Source: Microglena sp. YARC
Lineage: Eukaryota; Chlorophyta; Chlorophyceae; Chlamydomonadales; Chlamydomonadaceae
Length of the DNA: 64,000 nucleotides
Direction of reading: 5' to 3'
Assembly: GCA_022414725.1 (NCBI GenBank)
Contig: CM039462.1
Coordinates: 120,892,750 to 120,956,749 of the forward strand
How positions within the stretch are numbered: position 1 is the stretch's first letter; each line of letters starts with the position of its first letter. Below are positions 8,593-61,208 of the stretch, piece after piece. The position numbers and the translations under genes were made by a program. The notes under the pieces were generated by a model that searched no databases, was not told where the DNA came from, and saw only the letters and a program-made list of their open reading frames with translations.

Positions 8593-8690
8593 AACATACG
8601 GATTCTGAAGGATGGAGAGACGTGATCTAAAAAAGAACCACGCTATTCTCTTACACGAAGCGGTTTCATTTTAGTATTCCGTTGACTGTA
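8578..8690. mobile_element. MITE, family A, 113 bp
   Basis: Begins TACAGTCGGCGGAG and ends TATTCCGTTGACTGTA, with inverted repeats of about 27 bp that include TAAAATGAAAC. TA dinucleotides sit at both ends, as for Tc1/mariner insertions. It has no coding capacity. The ends match the 3.6-kb element at 29004-32620, so it is a non-autonomous relative. It sits on the 3' end of the eIF4E gene. Confidence 0.8.
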
Positions 8691-18818: not shown

Positions 18819-18891
18819 GTTTCTGTTAGCTCAATGGCAGAGCGCCATTCTTATGAAATGGAGGTTGCGGGTTCGAGTCCCGCCTGAAATA
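18819..18891 (+). tRNA. tRNA-like gene, anticodon UAU (Ile)
   Basis: A 73-base cloverleaf can be drawn: acceptor stem with 6 of 7 pairs (one G-T, one T-T mismatch), D stem GCTC/GAGC, anticodon stem CCATT/AATGG with loop CTTATGA, five-base variable loop, and T stem GCGGG/CCCGC with loop TTCGAGT. Both control boxes (TAGCTCAATGG and GGTTCGAGTCC) are present. The connector after the acceptor has three bases instead of two, and position 37 is G, so it may be a relaxed viral or decaying copy. Giant viruses often carry tRNA genes at block edges; a host origin is equally possible. Confidence 0.65.
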
Positions 18892-22872: not shown

Positions 22873-23872
22873 NNNNNNNNNNNNNNNNNNNNNNNNNNNN
22901 NNNNNNNNNNNNNNNNNNNNNNNNNNNNNNNNNNNNNNNNNNNNNNNNNNNNNNNNNNNNNNNNNNNNNNNNNNNNNNNNNNNNNNNNNNNNNNNNNNNN
23001 NNNNNNNNNNNNNNNNNNNNNNNNNNNNNNNNNNNNNNNNNNNNNNNNNNNNNNNNNNNNNNNNNNNNNNNNNNNNNNNNNNNNNNNNNNNNNNNNNNNN
23101 NNNNNNNNNNNNNNNNNNNNNNNNNNNNNNNNNNNNNNNNNNNNNNNNNNNNNNNNNNNNNNNNNNNNNNNNNNNNNNNNNNNNNNNNNNNNNNNNNNNN
23201 NNNNNNNNNNNNNNNNNNNNNNNNNNNNNNNNNNNNNNNNNNNNNNNNNNNNNNNNNNNNNNNNNNNNNNNNNNNNNNNNNNNNNNNNNNNNNNNNNNNN
23301 NNNNNNNNNNNNNNNNNNNNNNNNNNNNNNNNNNNNNNNNNNNNNNNNNNNNNNNNNNNNNNNNNNNNNNNNNNNNNNNNNNNNNNNNNNNNNNNNNNNN
23401 NNNNNNNNNNNNNNNNNNNNNNNNNNNNNNNNNNNNNNNNNNNNNNNNNNNNNNNNNNNNNNNNNNNNNNNNNNNNNNNNNNNNNNNNNNNNNNNNNNNN
23501 NNNNNNNNNNNNNNNNNNNNNNNNNNNNNNNNNNNNNNNNNNNNNNNNNNNNNNNNNNNNNNNNNNNNNNNNNNNNNNNNNNNNNNNNNNNNNNNNNNNN
23601 NNNNNNNNNNNNNNNNNNNNNNNNNNNNNNNNNNNNNNNNNNNNNNNNNNNNNNNNNNNNNNNNNNNNNNNNNNNNNNNNNNNNNNNNNNNNNNNNNNNN
23701 NNNNNNNNNNNNNNNNNNNNNNNNNNNNNNNNNNNNNNNNNNNNNNNNNNNNNNNNNNNNNNNNNNNNNNNNNNNNNNNNNNNNNNNNNNNNNNNNNNNN
23801 NNNNNNNNNNNNNNNNNNNNNNNNNNNNNNNNNNNNNNNNNNNNNNNNNNNNNNNNNNNNNNNNNNNNNNNN
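22873..23872. other. Assembly gap, 1000 N
   Basis: Exactly 1000 unknown bases, probably a gap of set size. Order and distance of the two sides rest on scaffolding, so linkage between the left viral block and the right half is less certain. Confidence 0.99.
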
Positions 23873-26573: not shown

Positions 26574-26715
26574 TATTGTTCTCAAATAAAGTGGGACCAC
26601 ACCTTATACTCATCCAGACTGCATGATCGTTGTACCTTTTGGGCAACGTTGGGGGTGCAGCAGGTTTAGAGGTTCTCGAAGATGATATTCCGAGTAGCCT
26701 CTTTTGGTAAACCGT
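26574..26715 (-). mobile_element. 3' end fragment of the family B (Fanzor) element
   Basis: Closely matches 46970-47102: the terminal repeat (TGTTCTCAAATAAAGTGGGA), then GGGCAACGTTGGGGGTGCAG and a CTCGAAGATATTCC-like stretch that encodes the Fanzor C-terminus. Homology stops at about 26715. Small indels make it non-coding. It shows that the Fanzor element has been active here more than once. Confidence 0.75.
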
Positions 26716-29279: not shown

Positions 29280-29900
29280 TTGTTGCTTTTTCAAAAGTAC
29301 TCACAATGTACGATATCAAGTTAAAACAGTGTATCGTTTCATAAAACTCATTGGTTTTACAAGAAAAAGGAGCAAACTCCGTGACAGTGTAAAGGAGACT
29401 TAGTTCCACTTGTCAATGAATTTTGTATTAGTAGGTACAAGGAGACAATCAATGCTGGGAAAATTTTAGTATCAGTTGACGAATGTGGGTTTAGTGAGCG
29501 TCTCAAGCCAACATTATGGGTATTCCCCTGTAGGAAAACCTGTTATCGTTAAAACTACTGGTGGGTGGGTACACCACATTTGTGTTGATGGCAGTTTTTT
29601 CAGATGGTAGGAAAGAGTTCGTTGTGAAGAAAGGATCTATGAAGAAGAAGGACTTCGTTGCATTTATTGAATCATTGAGGATTTGTGCAATAACTCAGTA
29701 GTAATAATGGACAATGCCAGTATCCATAAGAAATTGGTCCTCAGTCACCCCGTCAATATTTGTTACACACCTCCTTACAGTCCTAGAATTCAACTTGCTA
29801 TTGAGCTATGCTTCGCTTAAGGTGAAGAGAGACTTTCGTGTTTTGAACTTATAACCGAATAAAACAAAGACGCACGTGTCTGAAATGATTTCCTTAGCAT
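29280..29900 (+). pseudogene. IS630/Tc1-type DDE transposase relic
   Basis: Split over several frames. An N-terminal helix-turn-helix end reads VYRFIKLIGFTRKRSKL. The catalytic pieces are SVDECGF (first Asp), VVIMDNASIHKK (second Asp) and YTPPYSPRIQLAIEL (the Glu). Spacing suits the DD-E family of Tc1/mariner and IS630 enzymes. At least five frame changes and stops. It lies directly upstream of the Fanzor relic. Confidence 0.75.
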
Positions 29901-32500: not shown

Positions 32501-32599
32501 TAAAAACTCGTATTGTGTAGACACCACTCGGTCCCCCTCCGTTGGTCGCGACAACATTAGGTTACACCGTAAGGTGTGCCGTACACGAAGCGGTTTCAT

Positions 32600-33134
32600 T
32601 TAAGTATTCCGTTGACTGTAAACAGCAATCTGGTCCAGAACGACGAACATCTTCCTAATCTTCGTCGGCACATACTGAGCGTCGATGGTAGGAGATGCTG
32701 CGCGTAGCGCATTCGCGTCTGGCTCCCCTACCATACTTATTATGTTCTCTATCACGTCAGGTGGAATTGATGACAATAGGGTTGGGTTCCAACTGTCTGC
32801 AAGACATGTGCTTTCGTTTGGGCAGAAGCGGATCACGGAATCGCCCACAACAGCGTCGGATGCAATGAGGCGGGTTAGTCTCCTTTCTAATACATTCCAC
32901 TCCACATAAATCTCAACAATGCATGCCCTCCGTCTAGGTCCATCCTTATTGTTCTCCCATGCTCGCATGTGCTCCAACAGTGTCAGTCTCCTCATAAGCG
33001 CACAGACGAGTCCGTTGAGATTGCATTTGCGGATATGAATATTTCTCATGCCACATTTTTTGAGGGTCTAAGGGTATGCTATCGTCCTTGACGTACGCCT
33101 CGAACGCATTGCGTTGTAGAAACAAAACCTGCAA
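32600..33134 (-). pseudogene. Hypothetical protein with F-box-like tail, frameshifted and truncated by transposon
   Basis: Starts MQVLFLQRNAFEAYVKDDS; the frame shifts near 33050 and continues IRKCNLNGLVCALMRRL. The segment SSIPPDVIENIISMVGEPDANALRAAS has the look of an F-box helix pair (substrate adaptor of ubiquitin ligases), though it is near the C-terminus rather than the N-terminus. The final codons (IAVYSQRNT) and the stop are supplied by the family A terminal repeat ending at 32620, so the true 3' end is lost. Function uncertain. Confidence 0.5.
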
Positions 33135-40365: not shown

Positions 40366-40623
40366 ATCAGGCAGAGGCCTCAATCAAGCACCCTTTGTTC
40401 ATGCTTCAAGTACTTGGCTGCAGTCTGAGAGAGTTGTACAATTATTTTTACATGGCAGACCACAAGACGACGACTGACTGACCAAGACGTCTTCAGACGA
40501 TCACCGCGCACAAAATCATCTTATATCAAACGGCGGAACGATGTCGATACTCTTGGGGGAGCACTTATTGGATGTGATTCGATGATGATTGGTGTCTCCT
40601 TGGTGGATTGGATGTGACGTCCA

Positions 40624-40664
40624 TCATTATAAAGGGTGTCCCACATTATTTGAGAATAACTATA
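40624..40664. mobile_element. Family B terminal repeat, solo right end
   Basis: ATTATAAAGGGTGTCCCAC then a TTATTTGAGAATAACTATA end with terminal TA. The next gene's ATG is two bases beyond. Confidence 0.65.
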
Positions 40665-42235: not shown

Positions 42236-42358
42236 TGTTCAAAGTACCCTGAAAAGTCAAACTGATGGCTAACATCGTGCGCATCAATAATCCTTTAGCA
42301 GAAACGGCAGCAATTAGTGTCAATTTGGACATTCGCAATGTCCTAGAAATTTGGATAT

Positions 42359-42445
42359 TTAAGGAGGACACGCAAACGGCGGAACACTGTCGAATGTATC
42401 GGACACCGAATGGCACACGCAAACGGCGGAACACTGTCGAATGTA
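42359..42445. repeat. Family E repeat, two copies
   Basis: Two copies of CACGCAAACGGCGGAACACT followed by GTCGAATGTAT, the second running directly into the family B MITE. Confidence 0.6.
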
Positions 42446-42653
42446 TACAGTTGTTCTCAAATAATTTTGGGACACTCAGTATAATTTGAATGATATCCCC
42501 TGAAACCAGGTACAGGTCCGTGGTTCACTACAAATATTTTTTGAGGAGTCTCAGGAAGGTTTGTAATATATACAACGTGTCCAAGAGCTACATAGATGGG
42601 TCAATGCTGATGGATGATTATAAAGTGTCCCACTTTATTTGAGAACAACTGTA
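42446..42653. mobile_element. MITE, family B, 208 bp
   Basis: Left end TACAGTTGTTCTCAAATAAT, right end TTTATTTGAGAACAACTGTA, TA at both ends. The right side also shares GGATGATTATAAAGTG with the end of the Fanzor element at 46965, so it is a non-autonomous derivative of it. The middle contains TTCACTACAAATATTTTTTG, repeated at 53060. Confidence 0.8.
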
Positions 42654-42940: not shown

Positions 42941-43068
42941 TGTCGCATCCACACGCAAACGTACATTCATGACACACGGATGCGGTGGCGGATTCTCGTC
43001 CTCGAATGAAGTGTAAACAACCATTCTTCAGTATAAACAACCATCAGCACAGCACACTTCACAAACAA

Positions 43069-44118
43069 ATGAGTTCCTTTGACGAAATCAATGAAGATGT
43101 ATTGGAGATCATTCTAGCCAATGCGATTTCGAACGAATCCCACCTCAAACAAGTGCCTCTCGTTTGCAAACAGTGGAGATGCGCCGCACCCCGGTGTGTC
43201 ACAAGGATCCACTTAAGACATTATAACAGTTTGGAATACGCATTATCACGCATTTGCAGGCTCAAAGAGTTGAAAATATGTGTCAATCGTGGGGAATACG
43301 TACCCTACCAATCAATGTCGGCTATCGAAGACAAGATCCAAGACATATCGCCGCTGTCCTTCCTCACTGCGTTGGTTCACCTGGACATATCGAACACCTA
43401 CGTGACCGACATATCGCCACTGTACGGACTCACTTCGTTGACGCACCTGAATATGTCGCACACCTACGTGGACGAACACATATTATCACCTCTGTCCGGA
43501 CTCACTTCGTTGACGCATCTGAACATATCGCACACACCTCTGTACAACATACAAGCTCTGTACGGACTCACTTCGTTGATTCACCTGAACATGGCGCACA
43601 CACTTGTGACCGACATATCACCACTGGAAGGACTCACTTCTTTGATTCACCTAGACATTTCGCTATCACAGCTTTCCGGACTCACCGCGTTGGTTCATCT
43701 GAACATGGCGTACACACGGGACCTATTATCACCGCTGGCAGGACTCACTTCGTTGATACACCTGAACATGGCGTCCACACGTGTGGACGACATATCACCA
43801 CTGGCAGGACTCACTCCATTGGTGCACCTCGACATTTCGAACACCGACGTGTACGACATATCACCGCTTTCCGGCCTCACTTCGTTGATTCACCTGAACA
43901 TGTCGTCCACACGTGTGGACGACATATCACCGCTGGCAGGACTCACTTCGTTGGTTCACCTGGACATTTCGAACACCGACGTGGACGACATATCACCGCT
44001 GGCAGGACTCACTTCGTTGGTTCACCTGGACATTTCGAACACCGACGTGGACGACATATCACCGCTGGCAGGACTCACTTCGTTGACGTACTTGAAAAAT
44101 GGATGGAATGATGTGTAA
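43069..44118 (+). CDS. F-box and leucine-rich-repeat protein, 349 aa
   Basis: The N-terminus MSSFDEINEDVLEIILANAI followed by LKQVPLVCKQWR is an F-box, which binds Skp1 in SCF ubiquitin ligases. From residue about 95 to the end there are about eleven leucine-rich repeats of 22-23 residues of the internalin-like form (LTSLVHLDISNTDVDDISPL). The last copies are almost identical in DNA, so the array has recently expanded. The start at 43069 is chosen because the F-box begins there; an upstream Met at 43006 is possible. F-box/LRR proteins occur both in protist genomes and in giant viruses. It likely selects a target for ubiquitination. A detached piece of the same repeat lies at 51590-51753. Confidence 0.8.
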   Translation: MSSFDEINEDVLEIILANAISNESHLKQVPLVCKQWRCAAPRCVTRIHLRHYNSLEYALSRICRLKELKICVNRGEYVPYQSMSAIEDKIQDISPLSFLTALVHLDISNTYVTDISPLYGLTSLTHLNMSHTYVDEHILSPLSGLTSLTHLNISHTPLYNIQALYGLTSLIHLNMAHTLVTDISPLEGLTSLIHLDISLSQLSGLTALVHLNMAYTRDLLSPLAGLTSLIHLNMASTRVDDISPLAGLTPLVHLDISNTDVYDISPLSGLTSLIHLNMSSTRVDDISPLAGLTSLVHLDISNTDVDDISPLAGLTSLVHLDISNTDVDDISPLAGLTSLTYLKNGWNDV

Positions 44119-44403: not shown

Positions 44404-45006
44404 TCAGATACCTACAAAACCGCGGGGAGGCAGATGTGATGCAGGGAATGTATTCAGTTCAGCAAACTGTGCGTCAATGATGAGATGGCATGCCTTCCAT
44501 GCACACCTGAGGCAGCGACACATCGTTGCAAAGTGCTCGCAGTTGTTAAATGCGGCGTTGTAGACAAATGGGGTTTGCTCAGCATCTTTGACCAGAGCGA
44601 GGGCAAGGCTTGCCGAGAGGGTCTGATCCAGAGCAGCCCCTTCGGGGTACAAAGCCTCCGCAAAGATAGAGCCGTTGGCAACGAAGTCTTCGTAGGATCG
44701 CAGGGAGACGTTGGCCTGCTCCTTAGAAATTCCCCACACATCAACGACTGTCGGGACTTCGATATCCCCTGGTGCCACCACTTGCTTCCCGACAAAGATG
44801 CCATGGTGCCTGTAACCGGATGCGTCTTTTACCATGATCTGGGCGCCAGGCTTAAGCTTGCCGAACATAGCATAGCCGCTCTTGTACGGCGTCAGGGTAG
44901 CATATGGGTGCCCGATGTCTGGGGGTGACCAATCTGGAAGCATTCGCTTGATGTGGGCGATTGCCGATGTGAGGATGTCGGCAAGGGGATCTTCCCGAGA
45001 TGCCAT
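44404..45006 (-). CDS. LRAT-like (NlpC/P60 superfamily) protein, 200 aa
   Basis: GAQIMVKDASGYRHHGIFVG holds the catalytic His (residues 67-68) and AAFNNCEHFATMCR holds the nucleophile Cys (156), the arrangement of lecithin-retinol acyltransferase-like proteins, which move acyl groups between lipids or act as thiol acyltransferases. The third residue of the site is probably the Asp of VVDVWG. No membrane helix at the C-terminus, unlike animal LRAT. A paralogue lies at 52397-53029 on the other strand. Intact frame, ATG at 45006. Confidence 0.75.
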   Translation of the reverse strand: MASREDPLADILTSAIAHIKRMLPDWSPPDIGHPYATLTPYKSGYAMFGKLKPGAQIMVKDASGYRHHGIFVGKQVVAPGDIEVPTVVDVWGISKEQANVSLRSYEDFVANGSIFAEALYPEGAALDQTLSASLALALVKDAEQTPFVYNAAFNNCEHFATMCRCLRCAWKACHLIIDAQFAELNTFPASHLPPRGFVGI

Positions 45007-45558: not shown

Positions 45559-46160
45559 ATTGTGACAATTTTTCCAGGAAGATCGTCTTATCTGATACAG
45601 TATTGTGAATACATCCAAACACTACATCACAGTCGACGACAACTTAAACTTGACAACTTAAACTCACACACGCGTAGCGGCGGCTGCTGTCGAATGGCAC
45701 ACACAGGACACTCATTGACACACGCAAACATGTAGACGAATCCTCTTCATACAGTCGATCGCTCCTCCTGAACGACTCGCTAGCTTGAGACATCAGCACT
45801 AAGGAATCACAAATCCTCTCCATACAATGTTTCGCAACCAGTCAAAATCGGCCGGGAGGCAGGAACGCCCATTGTATGAATTCCGGGTATGAATGACTGT
45901 GTAAGAATGTTTTGTTTTTGACAAAACTCTTGAAAAATCACATGCAAGGGTGGACATGCTGCATGCTCGCGGTGTGCATCCACATGAGAATGTACGTACA
46001 GGGGGGGGATGCGCAAGCCGCCTCCTTGGCATGTGTGAGGATGAATGGATAACTCAACATGATAAGGAACTCTGAAGAAAAAACGTTACACCACAACAAA
46101 CAAGTCTTAGATAATTTTATTTTTTCATTTAAAATATATACACTTTCATTCATTCATTGA
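45559..46160. other. Intergenic with family E and family C copies
   Basis: 45660-45740 contains family E-like pieces (GTCGAATGGCACACACAGGA). 45769-45876 is a right-hand family C MITE part ending AATCGGCCGGGAGGCAGGAA. No gene. Confidence 0.55.
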
Positions 46161-46681
46161 ATGCCACGAGTGGAAAAACTACCTAAAGCGAAAAAGAAAC
46201 GAAGAGTCGATCTGATGTCGTGTGCTACACAGGTCCCCGTCCACGCGGAAAGAAGGACGACTCGTACACGTCCGAAGAGTTCGTCGCTTTTATGAAGCAT
46301 GAGGCCTCTGACAAAAAAGAACGGACGCTTGATGAATGGATAGAGTGGGCAGGCGCGATCCGCATGAAAGCATCGAAGTGCAGAAAAGTAACAAAATGCA
46401 ACGATAAACTCTCGGCTGCAGGTGAAGTCATTGAGAAAACTGAAAAGCCCCTCAAATCTTGTATCGAGAGCAAATGCCATAGTCGGTATGAACTCATGGC
46501 GAGGCTGACCAATAATTCCAAAACCGCCATGAGCTCGTTCGATAAACACGCAAGCACCGCGCGATGCGGTGCCGTCCATTGCTCGAATGAAGGCGTGAAA
46601 TATGGCAAGGCGACCAAAAAATGGGACGCAATATCGAAGAGATGCGATATTCCCCGAAAAGGGAGTGTCGGTGATTGTTGA
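46161..46681 (+). pseudogene. Hypothetical basic protein, probable frameshift near the start
   Basis: An ATG at 46161 gives MPRVEKLPKAKKKRRVDL, a typical nuclear-localisation-like start, but that frame closes soon after. The neighbouring frame is open from 46187 and reads GKKDDSYTSEEFVAFMKHEA and onward for 150 codons to 46681. A single indel between 46190 and 46240 would join them. The body is Lys-rich with spaced Cys (SKCRKVTKC, SCIESKCHSRYE, RCGAVHCSNEG). Family unknown; the only ungapped start of the long frame is a GTG. Confidence 0.45.
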
Positions 46682-46975
46682 TGCAGGGGCTGCATTTAGC
46701 TGAATCCGCTAAGCGACGGCTAGGTTATCTTGTCCACATACATCTACCAAGGTTGGCGGATCCTCACACAAAAGGGGACGCCGTGTTCATGGGAATTTGG
46801 CCTGAATTCGGGTTTTCTCATCTCATCGCATCGAGTGTGATACCGACGCACACGTATCTAACACAAATCTAATTCGGATCTATACTAAAACTGTCTGTAC
46901 GGGGGCGAATTCTGGTTTGTTAGCTGCTTGACAACCCTATTTTATCGCGGTATTACTTAAAGCCTACAGTTGTTC

Positions 46976-49317
46976 TCAAATAAAGTGGGACACTTTATAA
47001 TCATCCAGACTGCAGATCGTTGCTTTTGGGCAACGTTGGGGGGTGCAGAAGGTTGAAGAGGTTCTCGAAGATATTCCGAGTAGCCTCTTTGGTAAACCGT
47101 TCAACCGTCTGTGTCCCCATATCAGTATCAGGGGGTGGGGTGGGGTTGTCGAGGAACTTCTCGGCGCGTCTCGGCGAAACGCGAGAGGACGCTCTCTCCC
47201 AAAGACTTGGTGAAGTGTAAGCATCAGGATGTTTCTGGAAGCGTTCACATCGCGGTCCCAAGTCTTCCCGCAGTGAAGCATACCACCGCTCTGTTGGCGT
47301 GGCGCTCCGCTTTGACTGCTTTTGCAGTGGAGAATCTTATGAATCCGCTTGCGTACTTCTGTACATTCCCAACTTGTACCGTCTTGCTTCTTACTATGAG
47401 TGAGTGCCACCATGTTGCAAAGGTGGTTCTCACAGCAGCTGCATCGTTGAGATGTTCTGAACTCATCGATGTCCTCCATGATGACGTTTTCTCGGCTACG
47501 AAGCTCGAAACGAATAGCTTGGAGAGGGCCACAAGTCCGCCTAGAGATTGGCGTCGCCCCCAGACCTTTCCAATCACCAAACCCGACGAGTACCTTAGCG
47601 CTCTTCTCTCTCGGAGCTACGAAGTCAGCAATCTCAACAATAAGTTTCTGTTTCTTGCAGTACCTTCGAAAGCGGAGGTTTCGGTACCCCCTGGAAGCAC
47701 GATGGGCAAGAAGGATTGGGGCGGCACCCATGTAGAATCTGGCGTACGCACCAATCTGTTCAGAACTCGAAGAGTCTCTATCCGGAATGATACCACCGAC
47801 GATATCAGCCGTCTCGAGGTTCCAAACGTCAGTTTGACGCTGAGACTTGAAGATCAGACCCTTGCGATAATATTTCGCCGAGCTGTACGATCTGGTACCT
47901 CCGTTGAGTCCTGTTACAGTCACGATATCAGTAACACCCGGGTCTACCGCAGCCACGACCACATTGTCAAGGAAGGATACAATGCCACCCTCGTCTGTTG
48001 TCACGTACTCATGCGCCCGCGTAGAGAACGCGTCTGCAGGCATCGAACATGTCAGACACGTAGGCTTATTCATCAAGATGCTGACTGCAAAGCCGTCTGT
48101 CACAATGCGGTAACCGAACTTCCGAGAAACTGTCTCCACTTTCTTGAGGTTTGCGAAGCGCTCCCATATTCCTTGATGGTTTTTGGAAGCAACGTCTGCC
48201 TTGCATGAATCAAAGTGGCACTCGTTGACCATATAGAAAAGGGCCATTTTCGAAATCGGAATGTGCGACAGAGTGAATCCAGATTTGTAAGGCAACAACG
48301 AGAATGTGCGATGTTTTTCGTTTTTAGTTTTTCGTTTTTCTTCGATGGTCTCCGACAATATCTTGTGGTACAGAGGCAGGGTCATGTGAGCCCGAGACGC
48401 AAAAGTGTTTCCGGATGGTAAAGGTAGAACCCCCCTGAGACAGAATGCCACTTCGCGTGCAAAGAAGCGTTTCGCGTTATCTGCGTCCACCCTAAGGTTC
48501 TTCGAGGAGAGCCAAGCTTCGCTCAACTTTTCAAGCCTCTCTTGAAGTTTAGTCAACCTAACACGCAAAGGGGATCCTTCTGGTTCCTTCCTACCGACCC
48601 TCTTCTTCGCAAGAGCAACTGCACTTTTTGCCGATCGAAGTCTAGATGTTGGAAGCTTGGTTGGCAGCTTTGTTGTATGAGGGCTCATCTTGAAGATGAC
48701 GTCGAGATTCTTTGTAGGGCACTTGATCAATGCAGCCACGATGTCCGACCGCAGGCGCTTTGCAATCTGTGGGTACTTCCACTTCAAGTAAGTCGTTATG
48801 CGTCGCTCAAGGTTGGTCCAAAGATGGTTAGAGGCCATTGTTGCCATGAGAATAGACAGGTCTGCAATGATCTGGTTCTTCACGCTCCCCCGAATGTCAA
48901 CTTTGGATTGCCCCGGCTCTCTTAACAAGTCGAACAGAAGCCGACTACTCTCGAAGTCTTCGCCAAGAGTCGACCCTTACATTTGTTGGTACTGACTGCA
49001 ATAAGGCACCGGTAGAAGAAGTTGCGATTTACGGGAGGGACAGCGATACCATTCTCAAAAAGACGAGCAATGTGGAAATTTGCGAAAATATAACCCTCTC
49101 CAAGCAACTTGTTCATGTCCAGTACCAGTGTGTCTATCTTGTTACGAAGCCAATCATGGGGAATAAAGGTACTCAATTTCATCTTGACCACACAAATCGC
49201 TCGCCCAGGTGCACACTCCCCGTCTTCCTCCCCTTCATAATCGACAAGTTCTGCAACGTCATCATGTTGGTCAGCCTCATGTACCAACGATGATGACTCG
49301 CCGATCCCATTCTCCAT
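46976..49317 (-). CDS. Fanzor (TnpB-like RNA-guided endonuclease), nearly intact, one or two frameshifts
   Basis: The ATG at 49317 shares its A with the transposase stop codon (TGATG). The first about 120 codons (LLGEGYIFANFHIARLFENG) end in a frame change near 48965; the main frame then runs 650 codons. In that frame RuvC-I is AAVDPGVTDIVTV (Asp 329), a VGFGDWKG segment lies near 448-455, DEFRTS near 488-493, zinc ligands at 496, 498 or 499 and 553, and RuvC-III is TWDRDVNASRNI (Asp 560). All catalytic positions are present. Fanzors cut DNA guided by an RNA transcribed from the element's end. The C-terminus probably changes frame again near 47190, because a neighbouring frame (FLDNPTPPPDTDMGTQTVER) looks more protein-like. 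The listed stop lies inside the terminal repeat. Confidence 0.85.
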
Positions 49318-49937
49318 CACAAATTGTACCCCGAAAACGTTTTGATGTAATCTGGATCTGCAGACAGGCTCTCTCGAACATTCCTAACCCAATCTCTTGT
49401 ATTAATCATATATTTTGACAAGTCTTTATACCTCCACATTTCTAGAACACAACATATTTGCATTAAGTAATCGAAATTACAGGTTGACGTCAATGGACAT
49501 GATGCCCTGTAGTCTCTCTTCATGCTTCCAAATATTTGTTCAATCGCATTAGCTCTGGGGCAATAAGGAGGGGTGTACAAAAGCTTCCACCCTTTGCATT
49601 CGGATATATCCTTGATTTCTGAAGAATGGTGAAACCGAATATTATCCATGACGATCGTGGTTTTCTTTGGGATGACCAAAGTTTTAAAGAATTTAATGAA
49701 ATCTTATTTTTTACAATTGTGCTCCAATAACTGATAATCTATTATTCCCTGAGATGAAATAGCGAGTAATAAAGTGAACTTCACACGACGGAGGTTACTC
49801 ATTGTCTTCGTAGTTAATCGAGAACCGATCTTGCTGTATCCATATTTGCTGTGTTCTCCAGCGTAAAATCCTGCTTCGTCGATACAAACAACGTTAGATG
49901 CTGTGATCACGATATCGACTTGGTGCAATATCGTCAT
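49317..49937 (-). pseudogene. IS630/Tc1-type DDE transposase, one in-frame stop, N-terminus missing
   Basis: VVCIDEAGFYAGEHSKYGYS gives the first catalytic Asp, TTIVMDNIRFHH the second, and YTPPYCPRANAIEQIFG the Glu: a complete catalytic triad of the Tc1/mariner-IS630 family. One TAA at 49704-49706 interrupts an otherwise continuous frame. The helix-turn-helix that should precede is not found up to 50199. It ends in TGA, overlapping the Fanzor ATG by one base. Confidence 0.8.
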
Positions 49938-50199
49938 TCAACAAAGTGGCCATGTCGCTCTTGTGCAGGGAGGGATTGGAAGGCGGGCATGGGTTTGATC
50001 AATTGCGTCATGGAGTTGTACATGATAATTGGATTAATAGGGAATGGTACTACTTTGCCTCATGGTATCACCGGATGAGGAAGATGCTCAGACCCCCTCT
50101 TTTGAAAAATCGCAGAATTAAATTATCACTACTCAAGAGAAAGTCGTGTGTATCAAGCCGTATAGGATCAACCTGTTAACGACCATATCAAACTATATA

Positions 50200-50766
50200 T
50201 CACAGTTTAGTGAACGTGTTAGCCAATTCAGTCCATGACTTGCAATCGGCAGGGTGTCGCATGTCTCGTCCAATGAAATTAATTGTGAGTTGGTTAGCTG
50301 CGTTCTGGTCACACCACTTCCAGAATTGTGCCGCCGCAGTGAGACATGCAGAGGATCCATGTTTGGCACAATACGACTCACCGAACTTCAGCCCACCATT
50401 GATGTAAATTACAAACACTTTGTTTGGGGAGGTTTGCTCCTTCGTCCAATGCTCCAGCGCTACGTACGAGTCAACGACTTTTGTCGCGACATGGTGCACT
50501 TGAGACAGCCTAAGCCACTCGTCCACCGAATGGGGTTCGATATGGCTATCCATGAAAATCGCTGTATTGATGTTATAACCGGTTTGAATGAGGGCTATTA
50601 AAACATTCCACTCATGATATCCGCTGCCACACTCTGGAAATACAATGATTGATACCTTACTTGTGCATTTGTTTACATAATTGAGCACATTATTGACGAT
50701 GTGGTTACTGTCATTGGGTGTACATGCACTATTTTGTAGAACAGGTAAAGGATGATTTGCATCCAT
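50200..50766 (-). CDS. Hypothetical protein, 188 aa
   Basis: Starts MDANHPLPVLQNSACTP. KVSIIVFPECGSGYHEWNVL resembles the first strand and glycine loop of a Rossmann-like fold, and FVIYINGGLKFGESYCAKHG follows later. No catalytic motif is certain. It lies upstream of the transposase relic on the same strand and inside the proposed family B element, so it may be cargo. Intact frame. The 260 bases between it and the transposase hold no clear gene. Confidence 0.55.
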   Translation of the reverse strand: MDANHPLPVLQNSACTPNDSNHIVNNVLNYVNKCTSKVSIIVFPECGSGYHEWNVLIALIQTGYNINTAIFMDSHIEPHSVDEWLRLSQVHHVATKVVDSYVALEHWTKEQTSPNKVFVIYINGGLKFGESYCAKHGSSACLTAAAQFWKWCDQNAANQLTINFIGRDMRHPADCKSWTELANTFTKL

Positions 50767-50934
50767 TCTATGTTTGCATTATTATTTTGGTGATAAAATC
50801 ATGCACCACATTTCCTTAAGCACACTTTATCATGAAATACAAGGTGTCCCACTACTCCATGCTCGCACACGGCTGGATTGGTTTCCAGAACCAGGCACAT
50901 TTGCATCTACATGTGCCGTACTCTCCAGAAAGCG

Positions 50935-50962
50935 GTTTCATTTTAGTATTCCGTCAAGTGTA
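50935..50962. mobile_element. Solo terminal repeat, family A (right end)
   Basis: GTTTCATTTTAGTATTCCGT then CAAGTGTA with terminal TA at 50961-50962. It overlaps the last codons of the ATPase gene. Confidence 0.65.
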
Positions 50963-51409
50963 GAATTTGAATGCGTACGTGGCCTTCAACATCTTCAGCC
51001 AGTCAGATCCGTGATGGTCATGATACTGACTGAGTTGTAAGATGGTGTCTCGACCGTCTAGGGGAATGCTGCACGGGTGAGAGACAGACACGATGACGGC
51101 ACGAGCTTTCGACTGCATGGCATTGTGTAACAATTGGCGGCCTTGTACATTAAAAAGATGGATGTCATCAAATGCTAGCACATTGAAACCGTCAAGTGAA
51201 GGTGATTCTGATTCAGATTCAGACAGTTTACACAACGTTGCCTCTGGTGTATGTAAAGCATGGTACTCCTTATTATGTTCTGTCATGACCAATATTAGAG
51301 TGGGTGGTGAATGTTGAGCAATAAGTTGAGTGATAGCGTGACTCTTCCCACTTTCCCTGCGCCCTAAAATGTACATTACTTGTGGCTTACTTGTCTGTGT
51401 GATGCTCAT
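50954..51409 (-). CDS. Small P-loop ATPase, packaging-type (A32-like), 151 aa
   Basis: VMYILGRRESGKSHAITQLI is a Walker A loop and FNVLAFDDIHLFN a Walker B with a trailing Asp, followed by ARAVIVSVSHPCSIP, the place of the sensor strand. This order matches the FtsK/HerA-A32 ATPases that pump DNA into capsids of NCLDV, virophages and polinton-like viruses, but it is about 100 residues shorter than usual. The 3' end runs into the family A terminal repeat ending at 50962, so it may be truncated. A similar single end (TACAGTCGGCG at 51463) lies on its other side. Other P-loop families cannot be excluded. Confidence 0.6.
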   Translation of the reverse strand: MSITQTSKPQVMYILGRRESGKSHAITQLIAQHSPPTLILVMTEHNKEYHALHTPEATLCKLSESESESPSLDGFNVLAFDDIHLFNVQGRQLLHNAMQSKARAVIVSVSHPCSIPLDGRDTILQLSQYHDHHGSDWLKMLKATYAFKFYT

Positions 51410-51500
51410 TTACTCACATGACAAGGGAATTTGATGCATATAATAACCGCAACCAACTAAGCTACAGTCGGCGTGTCCAGGAAGAGAGGCGATCGCTTCA

Positions 51501-51753
51501 GTGCGGCGGCTGGTCCTTCAATGGGCACTCTCGAAGGTCGAAGACCGATTATCGCTGTCCGGCTTCATTTCGTTTTGTCGCCTGAGCAAGGTGCTCGACA
51601 TATCACCGCTTGCCGGACTCACTTCGTTGGTTCACCTGGACATTTCGAACACCGACGTGCTCGACATATCACCGCTTGCCGGACTCACTTCGTTGGTTCA
51701 CCTGGACATTTCGAACACCGACGTGGACGACATATCACCGCTTGCCGGACGAG
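51501..51753 (+). pseudogene. Leucine-rich-repeat fragment
   Basis: Two and a half repeats of LTSLVHLDISNTDV type, with DNA nearly identical to the end of the gene at 43069-44118. No F-box. It merges into repeat family F at about 51760. It is a recent partial copy or recombination product. Confidence 0.7.
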
Positions 51754-51775
51754 GACGAGAGGAGAGATTTTTTGG

Positions 51776-52396: not shown

Positions 52397-53029
52397 ATGA
52401 ACAGCCTGATGTTGTTGGTGGCCAAGATACTGGGCGTAAAGTCAGAAGGTGCTGATAGTGACGTTTTCGCCCTCATGGAGGGCGCGATGAATGTCATGGG
52501 AATTCACAACTTGCTCCCGCAGTCAGCCCGCCGTGTTGACATAGCTGAAGTTGCCACAGAGCTCCTTTCTGGCGATCAGATCCTCATTCGGACAGCGGGT
52601 AGCAAGCAGAGATTCCATCATGGAATCTTTGTTGGTCCCATTTCAGGAGTGCAGGGGGGTAAAAATCTCGTGGTTGATTGTTGGGGCTCACATGATGCTT
52701 GCAAACAAGAGGCCAAGATCCGGCTGCGTACATTGGGCGAATTCATGGCTGTCCCCGGCTGGCCTGAGCTTGCTGTAATGTGTTGGGATAGCGACACACC
52801 AGAGCTTCGGGAGTTCTCGGCGGCACTGGCGTTGGGGCTGCACAGGGATCTGCAAGATTGCTCTGGCCTCTATCACTTGCTGGGCCGCAACTGTGACCAC
52901 TTTGCGACATGGTGCCGTACGCTCAGGTGGGATTCAGTTAAGTTGTCTCGAATTGCCGCTCAGGTGTACCTGATGACACATGCGATGCCTTTTCATCCAA
53001 CACAAAAAATCAAAGCCTGGTTTGTTTAA
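52397..53029 (+). CDS. LRAT-like (NlpC/P60 superfamily) protein, 210 aa
   Basis: GDQILIRTAGSKQRFHHGIF places the catalytic His at 74-75 and LLGRNCDHFATWCRTLRW the Cys at 166. VVDCWGSHD lies between them. Same architecture and spacing as the gene at 44404-45006, but clearly diverged, so an older duplication or two transfers. Acyltransferase or thiol-hydrolase activity is likely. The N-terminal helix (MNSLMLLVAKILGV) is weakly hydrophobic. Intact; ATG at 52397, no signal peptide predicted by eye. Confidence 0.75.
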   Translation: MNSLMLLVAKILGVKSEGADSDVFALMEGAMNVMGIHNLLPQSARRVDIAEVATELLSGDQILIRTAGSKQRFHHGIFVGPISGVQGGKNLVVDCWGSHDACKQEAKIRLRTLGEFMAVPGWPELAVMCWDSDTPELREFSAALALGLHRDLQDCSGLYHLLGRNCDHFATWCRTLRWDSVKLSRIAAQVYLMTHAMPFHPTQKIKAWFV

Positions 53030-53058
53030 AATATTTTCATTTTGTTTTTGTTGTTGTT

Positions 53059-53130
53059 GGTTCACTACAAATATTTTTTGAGGAGTCTGAGGAAAGTTTG
53101 TAAGGTGTGCCCCACTTTATTTGAAACGCG
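53059..53130. repeat. Family B MITE piece (interior plus right end)
   Basis: GGTTCACTACAAATATTTTT as inside the MITE at 42446, then GTGTGCCCCACTTTATTTGA, a variant of the right terminus. Confidence 0.55.
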
Positions 53131-53262
53131 GATGAGGCAACGAGGACCCCGCGCGCCAAATAGACTACGTTTCGAAAAAAATTGAAACGTTTTCTCCAGC
53201 ACAACAACCAACAACAACTACAACACACGTAATCGCCAAATTCACTCACTGAAATACCCGAA

Positions 53263-55090: not shown

Positions 55091-57661
55091 ATGCTATTGT
55101 CTGAAATCTATGCGAAATCACAGTCGACATCAAACATTATATATAGCGATGATGCACCCATTAAAGGAGTGCGATTGCGACCAGGTGTTAAAGAAGCACC
55201 ATCGATGTCATTTAAACAAGATACAGACACAGGAATGTTCAATGCATCAAGTAATGTCATAGGATTTGCTTCAGGAGCATATACTACGCTCATTGCATCA
55301 TCTTCCAATTTACAAGCCAATACGCAAATCACAACATCTTCAAATATCGTGCCTCTCAACGACAATGTATCACAATTAGGAACAGTAACAAAGAAGTTCG
55401 CAAAACTGTATGCAACAGATATCTATGGAACATCTGCTACATTTAACACACTCGGAGGAACGGCCATCTCAAGTATCGTCACTTCCACAAGTACAAATGT
55501 CGCAGCCAGTTCTGCAGCGGTCAAATCAACATACGATATTGCCGTCTCAGCTACCAATCAGACGTACGGCATCGGCGATCTCGATAGTAATGGTGATCTC
55601 CTTCTCAGGGGCAACTTGCGCATCTCCGAAAATGCCAATATATACAAAGGTACAGAGGTATTCAGTAGCGGGGGCGGTGGTGTTGTCGGACAGACGGACA
55701 TGCGATCTTTGCCAACGAATTCTAAAATAAGTGATTTCACCATTCTGATATCACCGACAGGTAGCATTATCACATGTGGACAGAACAACAACGGCCAACT
55801 AGGAAATAACACGAGTTCAACAGGTGCGACGACAATATTACAAACCATATCGAGTAATGGATCTCTGAATGGTAAAACGATCGTGGCCATTTCGGGCGGC
55901 ATCAGTCACACGCTTGCCCTGGACTCGACGGGACGCGTGCACTCATGGGGAACCAACCAATTCGGCCAGCTCGGAAATAATACTACCACTCAATCAAATG
56001 TTCCGATAGATGTCTCGAGTTTCGGATCTATTGTCGGTAAAACGATCGTGTCCATTTCTGGAGGCGAAATTCACACGCTTGCCCTTGACTCGACGGGACG
56101 CGTGCACTCATGGGGAACCAACCAATTCGGCCAGCTCGGAGATAATAATATTGCTAGTTCATATGCCCCGAACGATATCTCGAGTAATGGATCTCTGAAT
56201 GGTAAAACGATCGTGGCCATTGCGTGCGGCAACCGACACACACTTGCCCTTGACTCTACGGGACGCGTGCACGCATGGGGAAACAACCACTTCGGCCAGA
56301 TCGGATTTAATAGTACCACTCAACCAACTCATCCGGTCGATGTCTCGAGCTATGGATCTATTGTCGGTAAAACGATCGTGGCCATTGCGTGCGGCGACGG
56401 TTTCACGCTTGCCATCGACTCTACGGGACGCGTGCACGCATGGGGACTCAACACCAGTGGCCAACTCGGAAATAATACTTACACTCGTTCAGTAGTTCCG
56501 ATCGATGTATCGAGCTTCGGATCTCTTGGCGGTAAAACGATCATGGCCATTGCGTGCGGTCAATCTCACACACTTGCCATTGACTCGACGGGACGCGTGC
56601 ACTCATGGGGATACAACGGTCACGGCCAGCTAGGAAATAATTACAGTACTTCAAATGTTCCGCTAGATGTATCGAGTTTCGGATCTCTGAATGGTCAAAC
56701 GATCGTGGCCATTGCGGGCGGCAAAAATCACACGCTTGCCCTTGACTCTACGGGGCGTGTGCACTCATGGGGAATAAACCAATTCGGCCAGCTCGGAAAT
56801 AATACTACCAACCAATCACAAGTCGCTGGTTTAGCGTTCACAACCGTCTTTACGGCGGTCTCAAACTTCGTGAACTTCACAGGCCAACATCGTTGCTTCG
56901 TGGACGCGCTCGCTCCATCACGTCTGCGCGATCACGAAGGGCTTGTGGTCGTCACCGACAAAAACGCATACGCATCCGGTCTGTTAAGAGGACGACAACG
57001 CGCCATGACAATCAACCAAGCCCTACCTATCGTCTCTCTTTCCAAGGTCCCAAAAGATCCCCGTGCATTCGGTGTGATCTCTCTCACCCAGGACCATCCC
57101 CCAGGTCCATCTGCATCCCTCTCAAGAACAGAGCTCCTAAAGATCGCAGAACAAGGTGATGTACGTGTCCAAATCAATTCGATCGGCGAAGGATGCATCT
57201 GGGTATGTGACGAGACCGGATCAAATATCCATGCAGGTGATTACGTCACCACCAGTAGTTTGTCCGGTTACTCGTCTCTCCAAGTATTAGATGATGATGG
57301 AGATGTACCGGATGGTACATTACGAAACTATACGGTCGCAAAACTCACGATGGATTGTGATTTCTCACAGCCTCTGGTAGATGTTGAAGAAGTACAACAA
57401 GATGAATATGGGAATGTCGTTTTCGATGCAGACGGATCTCTCGTGTACACGATTGTGACCACGACACACGGTCCTTCTGTTGTGGACCCAGATACCGGAG
57501 AGATACGTGCTGGGGAACCACTCGAAACACCTATTCCAGTGACCGAACCTTCCTACGAAATGCGCTGGATGACAACCGAAATCGATGCATCCTCAGGTGT
57601 ATCGATCACGACTATTATTTCAAAAGAAGATTACGAGAAACGAAGTCAGATGGACAATTAG
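55091..57661 (+). CDS. RCC1-repeat virion fibre protein, 856 aa
   Basis: Three parts. Residues 1 to about 200 are fibre-like, with the marker DTDTGMFNASSNVIGFASGA and NIVPLNDNVSQLGTVTKKFA. Residues about 213-580 are six to seven RCC1 repeats (LALDSTGRVHSWGTNQFGQL), a seven-bladed propeller used for protein contact. Residues about 585-760 hold a module found next to fibres in algal giant viruses (NFTGQHRCFVDAL, GEGCIWVCDETGSN, YTVAKLTMDCDFS). The tail is acidic. It is likely an adhesin or surface fibre. The frame is intact despite repeats of about 165 bp. An upstream TATATAAA lies six bases before the ATG. A family A fragment ends 110 bases upstream. Confidence 0.8.
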   Translation: MLLSEIYAKSQSTSNIIYSDDAPIKGVRLRPGVKEAPSMSFKQDTDTGMFNASSNVIGFASGAYTTLIASSSNLQANTQITTSSNIVPLNDNVSQLGTVTKKFAKLYATDIYGTSATFNTLGGTAISSIVTSTSTNVAASSAAVKSTYDIAVSATNQTYGIGDLDSNGDLLLRGNLRISENANIYKGTEVFSSGGGGVVGQTDMRSLPTNSKISDFTILISPTGSIITCGQNNNGQLGNNTSSTGATTILQTISSNGSLNGKTIVAISGGISHTLALDSTGRVHSWGTNQFGQLGNNTTTQSNVPIDVSSFGSIVGKTIVSISGGEIHTLALDSTGRVHSWGTNQFGQLGDNNIASSYAPNDISSNGSLNGKTIVAIACGNRHTLALDSTGRVHAWGNNHFGQIGFNSTTQPTHPVDVSSYGSIVGKTIVAIACGDGFTLAIDSTGRVHAWGLNTSGQLGNNTYTRSVVPIDVSSFGSLGGKTIMAIACGQSHTLAIDSTGRVHSWGYNGHGQLGNNYSTSNVPLDVSSFGSLNGQTIVAIAGGKNHTLALDSTGRVHSWGINQFGQLGNNTTNQSQVAGLAFTTVFTAVSNFVNFTGQHRCFVDALAPSRLRDHEGLVVVTDKNAYASGLLRGRQRAMTINQALPIVSLSKVPKDPRAFGVISLTQDHPPGPSASLSRTELLKIAEQGDVRVQINSIGEGCIWVCDETGSNIHAGDYVTTSSLSGYSSLQVLDDDGDVPDGTLRNYTVAKLTMDCDFSQPLVDVEEVQQDEYGNVVFDADGSLVYTIVTTTHGPSVVDPDTGEIRAGEPLETPIPVTEPSYEMRWMTTEIDASSGVSITTIISKEDYEKRSQMDN

Positions 57662-57866: not shown

Positions 57867-60800
57867 CTTGATCCTCCTAGTTCGCAGTAACACCGAGCTG
57901 CGCGGACATGTCACGGTACCCGCCTCGATTACATCCATCGGTCGATTCTCTTCTTATGGTCCTTCAGTCTTTCACGCCGGAGCAGCGTTCTCAAATGCAC
58001 CAACTACATTCGGTGCCAACATCGCATGCAGTTCGATCATCGATGCAAGAGGAGGAATAGCTGTATCAGGATTCCTATCGAATGTTGCTCTGACACTTAC
58101 TGATTCTGGAGGAGGAATGGCATTGTTATCAGCTCCACTCCATTCCACACAAGATGTGCATCTGCAAAAAGAGCTAAAAGTCCATGGCAATGCGACCTTC
58201 GATACACACGTCTCCGTTAACGGCACGCTATACGCGAAAAACTTACATCCGTCTTTCAACACATTCTAAGCTAGCAACATCTTGATTTCACCAGGTGGAA
58301 TTATTCAGTTCGGAGAAGGAGGCTCTTCGACCATCTCCTTTTCCAACGCTCCGGACACGGGTCTGTTTAATCCAGTGGCTAGAACACTAGGTGTGGTCGC
58401 AGGAGGGACGGAGATGGTGCGTGTGTCAGACACAACCGTATCATTGTTGGGGGATCTCGTGGTGTCCTCGAACATAGTCCCGATGACGAACGCGACGCAG
58501 TACCTCGGGACATCGACCATGCACTTCAAAGAGGCGTGGATCGAAGAGCTCCACATCTCGTCGAACACTCTCTACATCGGGGACACGCCCGTGCTTTGCG
58601 CTGATAATGATGCCGTGTCCATCCGCGCTGACCCTGGGCAAGGCATCACGCTAACGACCACCGGCGATGGGGAGACATCCCTGGTGTCCGCCAAGGGAGT
58701 CAATGTAGTGTCGGAAGGGGGTGTCACGATGCGTGTATCAGGACCTCTAGGGAGAGTTAACATCCAGTCTAGCGGAGCAGGTGGAACCGTGAAGTTGGGA
58801 GCGGAAAAGGAAATTGTGATGACAGCACCTCTTACGACGATATCAAGTAACATGATCGTAAAAGGTGACCTGACTGTAGAAGGCACACAATTAACGGTGA
58901 ACACGCAGACGGTGACGATTGAGGACAATATAATTGTACTTAACTCGGGTGAGATAGGATCAGGTGTCTCAAAGGGTGAGGCAGGATTTTCTATAGATAG
59001 GGGAGATGCTCCCGAATATCAGCTTCTTTTTAGGGAGTCGGACAACGCGTTCGTAATAGGTCCGCTAGGCTCCCTCACACCCATAGCGACCGAGACATTT
59101 GCACGAAACGCAAACAATATATCCAGTGGAACATTAGCGGTTGCTAGAGGAGGAACGGGACTCTCCACCAGTACCGGAACAGGTAGTGTTGTTTTGAGTA
59201 GTTCTCCAACGTTTACGGGAACAGCTAACTTTGCATCTCTAACAACTTCTGGGCCTTCGACGATAAATGGTAACATGACCTTCGGAACCGGAGTCAATCT
59301 ATTTGTAAACCCTAACGATTCCGTGACTGCTCCAGGGTACTCTTGGGATACTGATACAAATACCGGAATGTATCGTGTTGCGGCAGATACAATAGGGTTT
59401 GCTGTAGGCGGGGTCAATAAAGCTACTATAAACAGCACGGGGATAGTGTGTAGCGGAGCTAATATAACCAGTTTAAGTGCTACCAACATATCCAGTGGAA
59501 TATTAGCGATTGCTAATGGAGGCACGGGAGTCAGTACTGGCTTAGGTGGTGCCCTGAACGCAAACAATATATCCAGTGGAACATTAGCGGTTGATAGAGG
59601 AGGAACAGGAGGCTCCACAAGTACCGGAACAGGTAGCGTTGTTTTGAGTAGTTCTCCAACGTTTACGGGAACAGCTAACTGTGCATCTCTAACAACTTCT
59701 GGGCCTTTGACGATAAATGGTAACATGACCTTCGGAACCGGAGTCAATCTATTTGTAAACCCTAACGATTCCGTGACTGCTCCAGGGTACTCTTGGGATA
59801 CTGATACAAATACCGGAATGTATCGTGTTGCGGCAGATACAATAGGGTTTGCTGTAGGCGGGGTCAATAAAGCTACTATAAACAGCACGGGGATAGTGTG
59901 TAGCGGAGCTAATATAACCAGTTTAAGTGCTACCAACATATCCAGTGGAATATTAGCGATTGCTAATGGAGGCACGGGAGTCAGTACTGGCTTAGGTGGT
60001 GCCCTGAACGCAAACAATATATCCAGTGGAACATTAGCGGTTGATAGAGGAGGAACAGGAGGCTCCACAAGTACCGGAACAGGTAGCGTTGTTTTGAGTA
60101 GTTCTCCAACGTTTACGGGAACAGCTAACTTTGCATCTCTAACAACTTCTGGGCCTTCGACGATAAATGGTAACATGACCTTCGGAACCGGAGTCAATCT
60201 ATTTGTAAACCCTAACGATTCCGTGACTGCTCCAGGGTACTCTTGGGATACTGATACAAATACCGGAATGTATCGTGTTGCGGCAGATACAATAGGGTTT
60301 GCTGTAGGCGGGGTCAATAAAGCTACTATAAACAGCACGGGGATAGTGTGTAGCGGAGCTAATATAACCAGTTTAAGTGCTACCAACATATCCAGTGGAA
60401 TATTAGCGATTGCTAATGGAGGCACGGGAGTCAGTACTGGCTTAGGTGGTGCCCTGAACGCAAACAATATATCCAGTGGAACATTAGCGGTTGATAGAGG
60501 AGGAACAGGAGGCTCCACAAGTACCGGAACCGGGAGCAACGTGTTGAGCGACAACGCAACTATGAGCAACTTGACGACCATAGGAGGCATGATCAGTGGT
60601 AACGGTGTCGGACTTACCGCATTGAACGCAAACAACATATCCAGTGGAACATTAGCAGTTGATAGAGGAGGAACGGGGGTATCCGTCAGTACCGGAACAG
60701 GTAGTGTTGTTTTGAGTGTTTCTCCAACGTTTACTGGAACAATTAACTTTGCATCTCTAACAACTTCCAATTTGGATGTGGGTGGTCTTACGACACTGAA

Positions 60801-61208
60801 TGGGAAGTGTATGTGTCTTGATACATTGACTGTGGGTGTTGGTGTTGGAGATGATACTGTTTACCCACTACATATAAAGACAAGTGTGGATAACGTATCC
60901 CTGTTCAGTGTGGGCGATGTGGTCATGTACTCCGACATTCGCACCAAGTCGGATGTGCTCCCGATTCCGGATGCATTGGACGTGTGGGACGCCTTCGAGG
61001 GTATACGTTCATAAAGAATGGTGGTGACGAGACACGTCGTCGTAGTTGTGGTCTCATTGCACAGGAACTATTGGATGTCTTGCCTGAAGCTGTGCATGCA
61101 CATCCGGAATCTGGAATGCTGACTGTCGCTTACGGGAATGTAGTGTCTTTACTTGTGAATGCGATAAATGAACTTAAGGCACAAGTCGATACTTTATCGG
61201 GCACTTAA
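57867..61208 (+). pseudogene. Long tail-fibre protein with S74 intramolecular chaperone, interrupted
   Basis: The likely start is the ATG at 57867, with a frame change near 57890. Then the frame is open to TAA at 58267-58269, and continues in the same frame from 58270 to 61012. Marker segments: NAPDTGLFNPVARTLGVVAG, NIVPMTNATQYLGTSTMHFK, TVTIEDNIIVLNSGEIGSG, and three 150-residue repeats containing SGTLAVDRGGTG and DTDTNTGMYRVAADTIGF. A one-base change near 60987 separates the C-terminal S74 domain (RLRGYTFIKNGGDE, CGLIAQELLDVLPEAV), ending at 61208. S74 domains fold fibre trimers and then cut themselves off. One nonsense codon and two frameshifts: either a pseudogene or read errors. Confidence 0.75.
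59108..60500 (+). repeat. 450-bp in-gene tandem repeat, three copies
   Basis: Copies begin at about 59108, 59558 and 60008, with the start of a fourth at 60458. They differ at only a few bases, so they are recent or kept alike by gene conversion. All encode the fibre repeat in frame. Confidence 0.9.

What the first reader, a model, noticed from the sequence alone, without database searches (positions are those of the whole stretch)
46965..50853. Tc1/mariner-like element with a transposase stop codon overlapping the Fanzor start codon
Seen: a DDE triad (49317-49937) ends in TGA, and the ATG of a Fanzor with all RuvC residues shares its A (TGATG). Family B terminal repeats lie beyond. Known: tnpA and tnpB overlap in bacterial IS607/IS605 operons, and Fanzor genes have been reported inside several eukaryotic transposon classes. 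Inference: one transcript could express both by termination and re-initiation, unusual for a eukaryotic or viral element.
Basis: partly seen in the sequence, partly recalled or inferred. Interest (0 to 1): 0.88.

Follow-up and report, generated by a model that had tools for sequence, protein, structure and literature searches.

The report
Dead Tc1-Fanzor transposon, overlapping gene junction
This is a broken copy of a compact jumping gene from a eukaryote or its virus, in which the transposase gene ends on the same base where a gene for an RNA-guided DNA cutter begins; the overlap is real and probably inherited, but both genes are inactivated here.

Summary
The TGATG junction is real: on the minus strand a TGA (49319-49317) ends a DD34E Tc1-type transposase frame and its last base starts a Fanzor1 ORF. 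But this copy is dead. The transposase lacks its first ~130 residues and has an in-frame TAA between the first two catalytic D's; the Fanzor frame shifts twice against a 99%-identical full-length relative. The left terminal repeat is genuine; the right one is a 16-bp partial match. The window also holds a 208-bp miniature element with both ends of the family, and other remnants. Fanzor1 inside mariner elements is already published; contig-length matching gives six transposase-Fanzor pairs among relatives (0.91 expected). The overlap is probably inherited in the nearest clade: the 75%-identical Fanzor P0002 starts Met-Met (ATGATG, which must contain TGATG) at the aligned position, and transposase P0094 stops at the matching residue. 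In P0003/P0095 the called Fanzor start lies about 3-4 codons later, and the other pairs have more leftover DNA, so wider conservation is not shown. Translational coupling by termination-reinitiation in intact elements is possible (about 0.22) and untested; eukaryotic precedents exist (SART1 UAAUG, GAD UGAUG). No DNA or RNA of an intact relative could be read; the host is unidentified. A new member of a known kind with an interesting junction.

The parts
46965..47007 (-). 3' terminal repeat of the element, outer end TA at 46965
   Evidence: identical over 43 bp to the 3' end of the miniature element at 42653-42611
46965..47060 (-). putative omegaRNA scaffold: end of the Fanzor coding region plus terminal repeat
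   Evidence: folds better than shuffles, z -3.02, 1 of 200 as good; the remnant at 26571 folds into similar hairpins but its own z is -0.09. Assignment is inference
47001..49317 (-). Fanzor1 pseudogene; frame changes between 48976 and 48958 and between 47144 and 47132; stop 47003-47001
   Evidence: tblastn of P0001, Pfam, PDB
49315..49319 (-). TGATG: transposase stop TGA overlapping Fanzor start ATG by one base
49317..49907 (-). 5'-truncated DD34E transposase pseudogene (D 49880-49878, D 49646-49644, E 49541-49539) with in-frame TAA 49706-49704
50200..50766 (-). 188-aa ORF of unknown function between the truncated transposase and the right partial repeat; whether it belongs to the element is unclear
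   Evidence: no Pfam or PHROG match
50838..50853 (-). partial terminal-repeat match, outer 19 bp missing
   Evidence: 14 of 16 bp
42446..42653 (+). 208-bp miniature relative: 5' repeat, transposase N-terminus (42490-42588), 3' repeat, TA at both ends
26576..26715 (-). decayed copy of the Fanzor 3' end and terminal repeat
   Evidence: 88% over 142 columns; frame-breaking indels
53058..53135 (+). remnant: transposase N-terminal piece (53060-53107) next to a degenerate repeat end (53107-53135)
40623..40664 (+). 3' repeat-like end, about 86% over 42 columns

Best explanation
46965 to about 49907 is a 5'-truncated, inactivated copy of a compact Tc1-type (DD34E) transposon. Intact relatives carry a transposase followed closely by a Fanzor1 nuclease gene whose coding end runs almost into the 3' terminal repeat. 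In an intact element the transposase would move it by cut-and-paste at TA (inferred from DD34E and the TA ends). Fanzor1 would be guided by an omegaRNA made from the end of its own gene plus the repeat, with flanking DNA as guide, and cut matching empty sites so that the element is copied back or kept (inferred from published Fanzor1 and TnpB work). The one-base stop-start overlap is inherited in at least the nearest clade and reflects tight packing; whether it also couples translation is open.
Against: No DNA of an intact copy was read. The contig pairs rest on equal lengths and sources, so one of the six could be chance, and in one of them (P0100) the transposase is only 239 aa. P0003's called start is about 3-4 codons later. 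The two frame changes could be assembly errors. The fold of the decayed copy is no better than shuffles (z -0.09) and Rfam finds nothing in 46000-51500. The origin of 49908-50853 is unexplained.
Confidence: 0.82

Rival explanations
1. The overlap is a working translational coupler: in intact elements one mRNA yields transposase and, by termination-reinitiation at TGATG, Fanzor1 at lower level.
For: 13 ATGs in the remaining transposase part upstream make scanning to the Fanzor ATG unlikely; TGATG also in P0002 by protein deduction; little spare DNA in the P0095/P0003 contig, 145 bp in all; a stem beginning about 17-20 nt downstream of the ATG (z -2.83, 2 of 200 shuffles, best of three stretches), a layout like SART1, where the needed structure lies downstream (PMC5972666, passages).
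Against: The ATG has G at -3 and G at +4 (sequence; that this is a good context is recalled), which also suits independent initiation from an internal promoter; the stretch upstream of the junction shows no structure (z +1.17); the other five pairs have 311-859 bp of leftover DNA; P0003 start shifted; the downstream stem could not be checked in relatives; no RNA data.
Confidence: 0.22
2. 46965-50853 is one complete composite element bounded by both repeats, with the 188-aa ORF as cargo, rather than a truncated copy.
For: The 50838-50853 match is more than chance (0 of 300 shuffles) and is inverted relative to 46984.
Against: It lacks the outer 19 bp; similar partial repeats lie elsewhere in the window as remnants; the transposase N-terminus is missing although full-length relatives have it.
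Confidence: 0.12
3. The lesions are assembly errors and the copy is in fact active.
For: The second frame change lies in a C-rich run, and the window holds a 1000-base run of N, as scaffolds do.
Against: A nonsense codon and loss of the whole N-terminal third of the transposase, including its DNA-binding region, are not typical assembly slips.
Confidence: 0.04

Closest known systems
Fanzor1-carrying Mariner elements (PGv-1, PUl-1, HMa-1; Bao and Jurka 2013, PMC3627910)
   Same: Mariner-type transposase in the 5' part, Fanzor1 in the 3' part, TIRs and TA target duplications (section 7 and passages read)
   Different: PGv-1 has a GIY-YIG nuclease gene as a third gene; that paper's main text does not use the word 'overlap'. 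Here there are two genes sharing one base, and this copy is truncated
Bacterial IS607/IS605 tnpA-tnpB
   Same: Transposase gene with an RNA-guided nuclease gene; overlap of the two genes in some elements is recalled, not checked (only a search listing seen)
   Different: Serine or HUH transposase there; DD34E Tc1-type here, with TIRs, in a eukaryotic-type Fanzor1 family
SART1 non-LTR retrotransposon stop-start coupling (UAAUG), and GAD and SLAMF1 mRNAs (UGAUG)
   Same: Overlapping stop and start codons in eukaryotic transcripts (review PMC5972666, passages)
   Different: Those are a retrotransposon and cellular mRNAs; coupling is untested here
Tc1-type and miniature elements in pandoravirus genomes (PMC4495683, PMC6004678)
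   Same: Tc1/mariner elements and derived miniature elements in large viral genomes (search listing only)
   Different: Whether they carry Fanzor was not checked; the host of this window is not identified

Membership tests
Tc1/mariner superfamily | DDE/D triad with DD34E or DD34D spacing | tested here: met
   34 residues between second D and E in P0093-P0095; the same residues in the window frame, interrupted by TAA
Tc1/mariner superfamily | N-terminal helix-turn-helix DNA-binding region | tested here: not met
   absent from this copy; full-length relatives P0094 and P0095 have weak, sub-threshold HTH matches. So the family is met by relatives; this copy is a fragment
Tc1/mariner superfamily | Terminal inverted repeats flanked by TA | tested here: inconclusive
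   left end with TA at 46965; right end only a 16-bp partial match. The miniature relative 42446-42653 has both ends with TA
Fanzor1 | D-X(125,275)-[TS][TS]xx-C4 zinc finger-RD motif (Bao and Jurka) | tested here: met
   pattern found in the window fragment, P0001, P0002 and P0003, with the spacing inside the zinc finger set loosely by me
Fanzor1 | Closer to Fanzor1 than to Fanzor2 or TnpB | tested here: met
   at E 0.01 the 30-sequence profile matches only Spizellomyces and Parasitella Fanzor chains in the PDB; no tree was built
Fanzor1 | omegaRNA from the 3' end of the element | tested here: inconclusive
   3' end folds well (z -3.02) but the second copy does not (z -0.09); no RNA data
Fanzor1 | Intact RNA-guided nuclease | tested here: not met
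   two frame changes against P0001; intact relatives exist
Termination-reinitiation bicistron | Overlapping or nearby stop and start codons | tested here: met
   TGATG
Termination-reinitiation bicistron | Downstream expression depends on upstream translation | not testable with these tools
   needs reporter or ribosome data

The most novel reading that the evidence does not exclude
A clade of eukaryotic or viral Tc1-type transposons keeps a TGATG overlap so that transposase and RNA-guided Fanzor1 are made from one mRNA by termination-reinitiation, helped by a hairpin just downstream of the start: a eukaryotic re-invention of the bacterial tnpA-tnpB operon layout.
Probability: 0.22. Interest if true: 0.7.

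Novelty: new member of a known kind. Interest (0 to 1): 0.4.

Why it matters
If the overlap couples the two proteins, a single reporter or long-read RNA experiment would show how eukaryotic elements tie transposition to RNA-guided cutting in a fixed ratio. What Fanzors do for their transposons is still open. Even without coupling, the family gives a compact Tc1-Fanzor1 pairing that recurs in metagenomes (six contig-length-matched pairs) and suits a test of whether Fanzor helps a DD34E transposon persist.

Tried and rejected
DNA of relatives: seven viral-contig scans with the Fanzor, the transposase, their alignments, the window's primase-like protein or the repeat end and two genome-contig scans gave no close relative. 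The 77 and 11 loci found are 20-59% identical in their best segment, mostly over the catalytic core, and none of these 88 loci matched any of 11 Fanzors at E 1e-3. An eighth viral scan with an RCC1-repeat protein, for host identity, gave one locus at 31%. Phage tblastn gave no match for the primase and the Fanzor and one 26% partial match for the transposase. Rfam found nothing at gathering scores in 46000-51500.

Considered and rejected: an intron between the genes (the frames abut; not testable without RNA); the right repeat as a true mate end; leaky scanning as the Fanzor start mode (13 upstream ATGs in the part that remains). The statement that a shared stop-start in Fanzor elements is not described rests only on one search with 0 papers and on word finds in four papers: 'overlap' occurs 0 times in PMC3627910, PMC10711439 and PMC11423790 and 4 times in PMC10432273, where the passages shown concern omegaRNA. 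Most subscription papers are not in that library.

Full report
What was claimed and what is there. On the minus strand the sequence reads TTTGTGATGGAG: TGA at 49319-49317 and ATG at 49317-49315 share one A. The frame ending there carries D (49880-49878), D (49646-49644) and E (49541-49539), spaced DD34E; its downstream piece matches Pfam DDE_3, E 1.3e-13. The frame starting there is a Fanzor: PF07282 at E 5.8e-7, the Spizellomyces Fanzor as the only solved relative, E 2.2e-7, and a D...[TS][TS]xx-C4-RD pattern. A profile of 30 relatives matches only Spizellomyces and Parasitella Fanzor chains in the PDB.

The copy is dead. The transposase frame has an in-frame TAA at 49706-49704, between the first and second catalytic D. 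Full-length relatives of 327-328 aa align only from near 49907-49901 (SNVVCIDEAGF), and their first ~130 residues have no counterpart just upstream. The Fanzor changes frame between 48976 and 48958 and again between 47144 and 47132 against P0001, a 772-aa protein 99% identical to the query piece over 92% of it that begins at the same Met. Intact relatives therefore exist, but this copy makes neither protein. The frame changes, unlike the truncation, could be assembly errors. A further relative, P0099, carries the same transposase core at 99% but is followed by other sequence that resembles the reverse strand of this window's leucine-rich repeat arrays, so other disrupted copies of the family exist.

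Ends and kin in the window. The 3' end is TACAGTTGTTCTCAAATAAAGTGGGACAC at 46965, with the Fanzor stop 36 nt inside it. The same 43 bp close a 208-bp miniature element at 42446-42653. That element begins with a similar repeat and the transposase N-terminus (29 of 33 residues as in P0094, ATG 44 nt from the outer end) and has TA at both ends. Other remnants are 26576-26715 (88% to the Fanzor 3' end), 53058-53135, 40664 and 34412. It is at best a remnant, and the 188-aa ORF beside it has no known relative.

Relatives. The Fanzor search gave 92 proteins, the two transposase searches (120 of these listed), 131 distinct transposases in all. Matching exact contig length and a shared source gave six transposase-Fanzor pairs, against a mean of 0.91 and a maximum of 3 at 120 shifted lengths (all 92 and 131, on part of the lists, gave the same six pairs and 0.78). 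One or so of the six may be chance. In the closest pair (P0095 and P0003, 3466 bp) only 145 bp are left outside the two genes. Ends as in this window would take about 80 of these (44 and 36 nt), leaving about 65 bp for spacer and flanks. The other five pairs leave 311-859 bp, so tight packing is not shown for them.

Is the overlap conserved? P0002 (75% identical) begins Met-Met, with its second Met aligned to the window's Met, so its DNA must read ATGATG and contain TGATG. The transposase P0094 (79% identical) stops at the matching place, SGYNS against SGYNL; P0094 and P0002 were not shown to lie on one contig. P0002 is the only one of 92 Fanzors that starts Met-Met. P0003's called start aligns about 3-4 codons downstream, which does not support exact conservation, although gene callers choose starts loosely. 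In the window, no other in-frame ATG lies between the preceding in-frame stop and the shared VDY region. So the overlap is probably inherited in the nearest clade and not shown beyond it.

How it most likely works. For intact relatives (inference): cut-and-paste at TA by the DD34E enzyme, whose profile also matches Sleeping Beauty and Mos1 transposases. Fanzor1 would be guided by an omegaRNA from the 3' end. [quoted passage not shown] Here the last 96 nt fold better than shuffles (z -3.02). The 26571 remnant can form similar hairpins despite frame-breaking indels, but no better than its shuffles (z -0.09). Whether the stop-start couples translation is open. For: 13 ATGs upstream in the remaining transposase part, a stem beginning about 17-20 nt downstream of the ATG (z -2.83, best of three stretches; the stretch upstream gave z +1.17), and precedents: SART1, where the needed structure lies downstream, and GAD and SLAMF1 with UGAUG (PMC5972666, passages). 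Against: G at -3 and +4 around the ATG, a context (recalled) that suits independent initiation; variable leftover lengths in relatives; and no RNA data.

Known context. Bao and Jurka (PMC3627910, section 7 and passages) describe Mariner elements that encode both a transposase and Fanzor1, with the transposase in the 5' part, including one in a Phaeocystis virus. The kind is therefore known. The search 'Fanzor, overlap, transposase, start codon' found 0 papers. Tc1-type and miniature elements in pandoravirus genomes are known (PMC4495683, PMC6004678, search listing only).

Host. Not identified. A primase-like protein (PHROG match E 2.8e-16; Pfam matches below cut-off), a protein with weak virion-structural matches, and RCC1-repeat and LRAT-domain proteins suggest a large DNA virus or a viral insertion in a eukaryote. 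This is inference. Among the Fanzor relatives that bear names, Tetrabaena and Sanguina are green algae (recalled) and one is a Phytophthora. The genome search did not answer in 13 tries.

Noticed in passing
window 22873-23872: A run of exactly 1000 N; whether it is a scaffold gap or a masked stretch is not known.
   Followed up: no
window 43006-44118 and 51501-51770: Arrays of near-identical leucine-rich repeats (DISPLAGLTSLVHLDIS), at two places on either side of the element; a relative transposase fragment (P0099) is joined to similar repeat sequence read on the other strand.
   Followed up: partly
window 29582-29859: Weak transposase-like remnant on the plus strand (E about 2e-4 with P0107), a second Tc1-type fragment.
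   Followed up: no
window 42282-42362: Short transposase-like piece on the minus strand (E 0.006 with P0103) just before the miniature element.
   Followed up: no
window 50912-50962, 32575-32620, 8658-8690: A short repeated stretch near the 3' ends of unrelated ORFs; possibly a shared end-of-gene signal.
   Followed up: no
window 50954-51409: 151-aa P-loop (AAA-like, below Pfam cut-off) protein next to the right partial repeat.
   Followed up: no
window 55091-57661 and 58414-61014: A protein with RCC1 repeats and a phage-fibre-like match, and a highly repetitive protein with a weak virion-structural match.
   Followed up: partly
window 44404-45006 and 52397-53029: An LRAT-domain protein, and an ORF that looks similar by eye on the other side of the element; the second was not searched.
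   Followed up: no
window 18819-18891: A tRNA-Ile gene with anticodon TAT.
   Followed up: no
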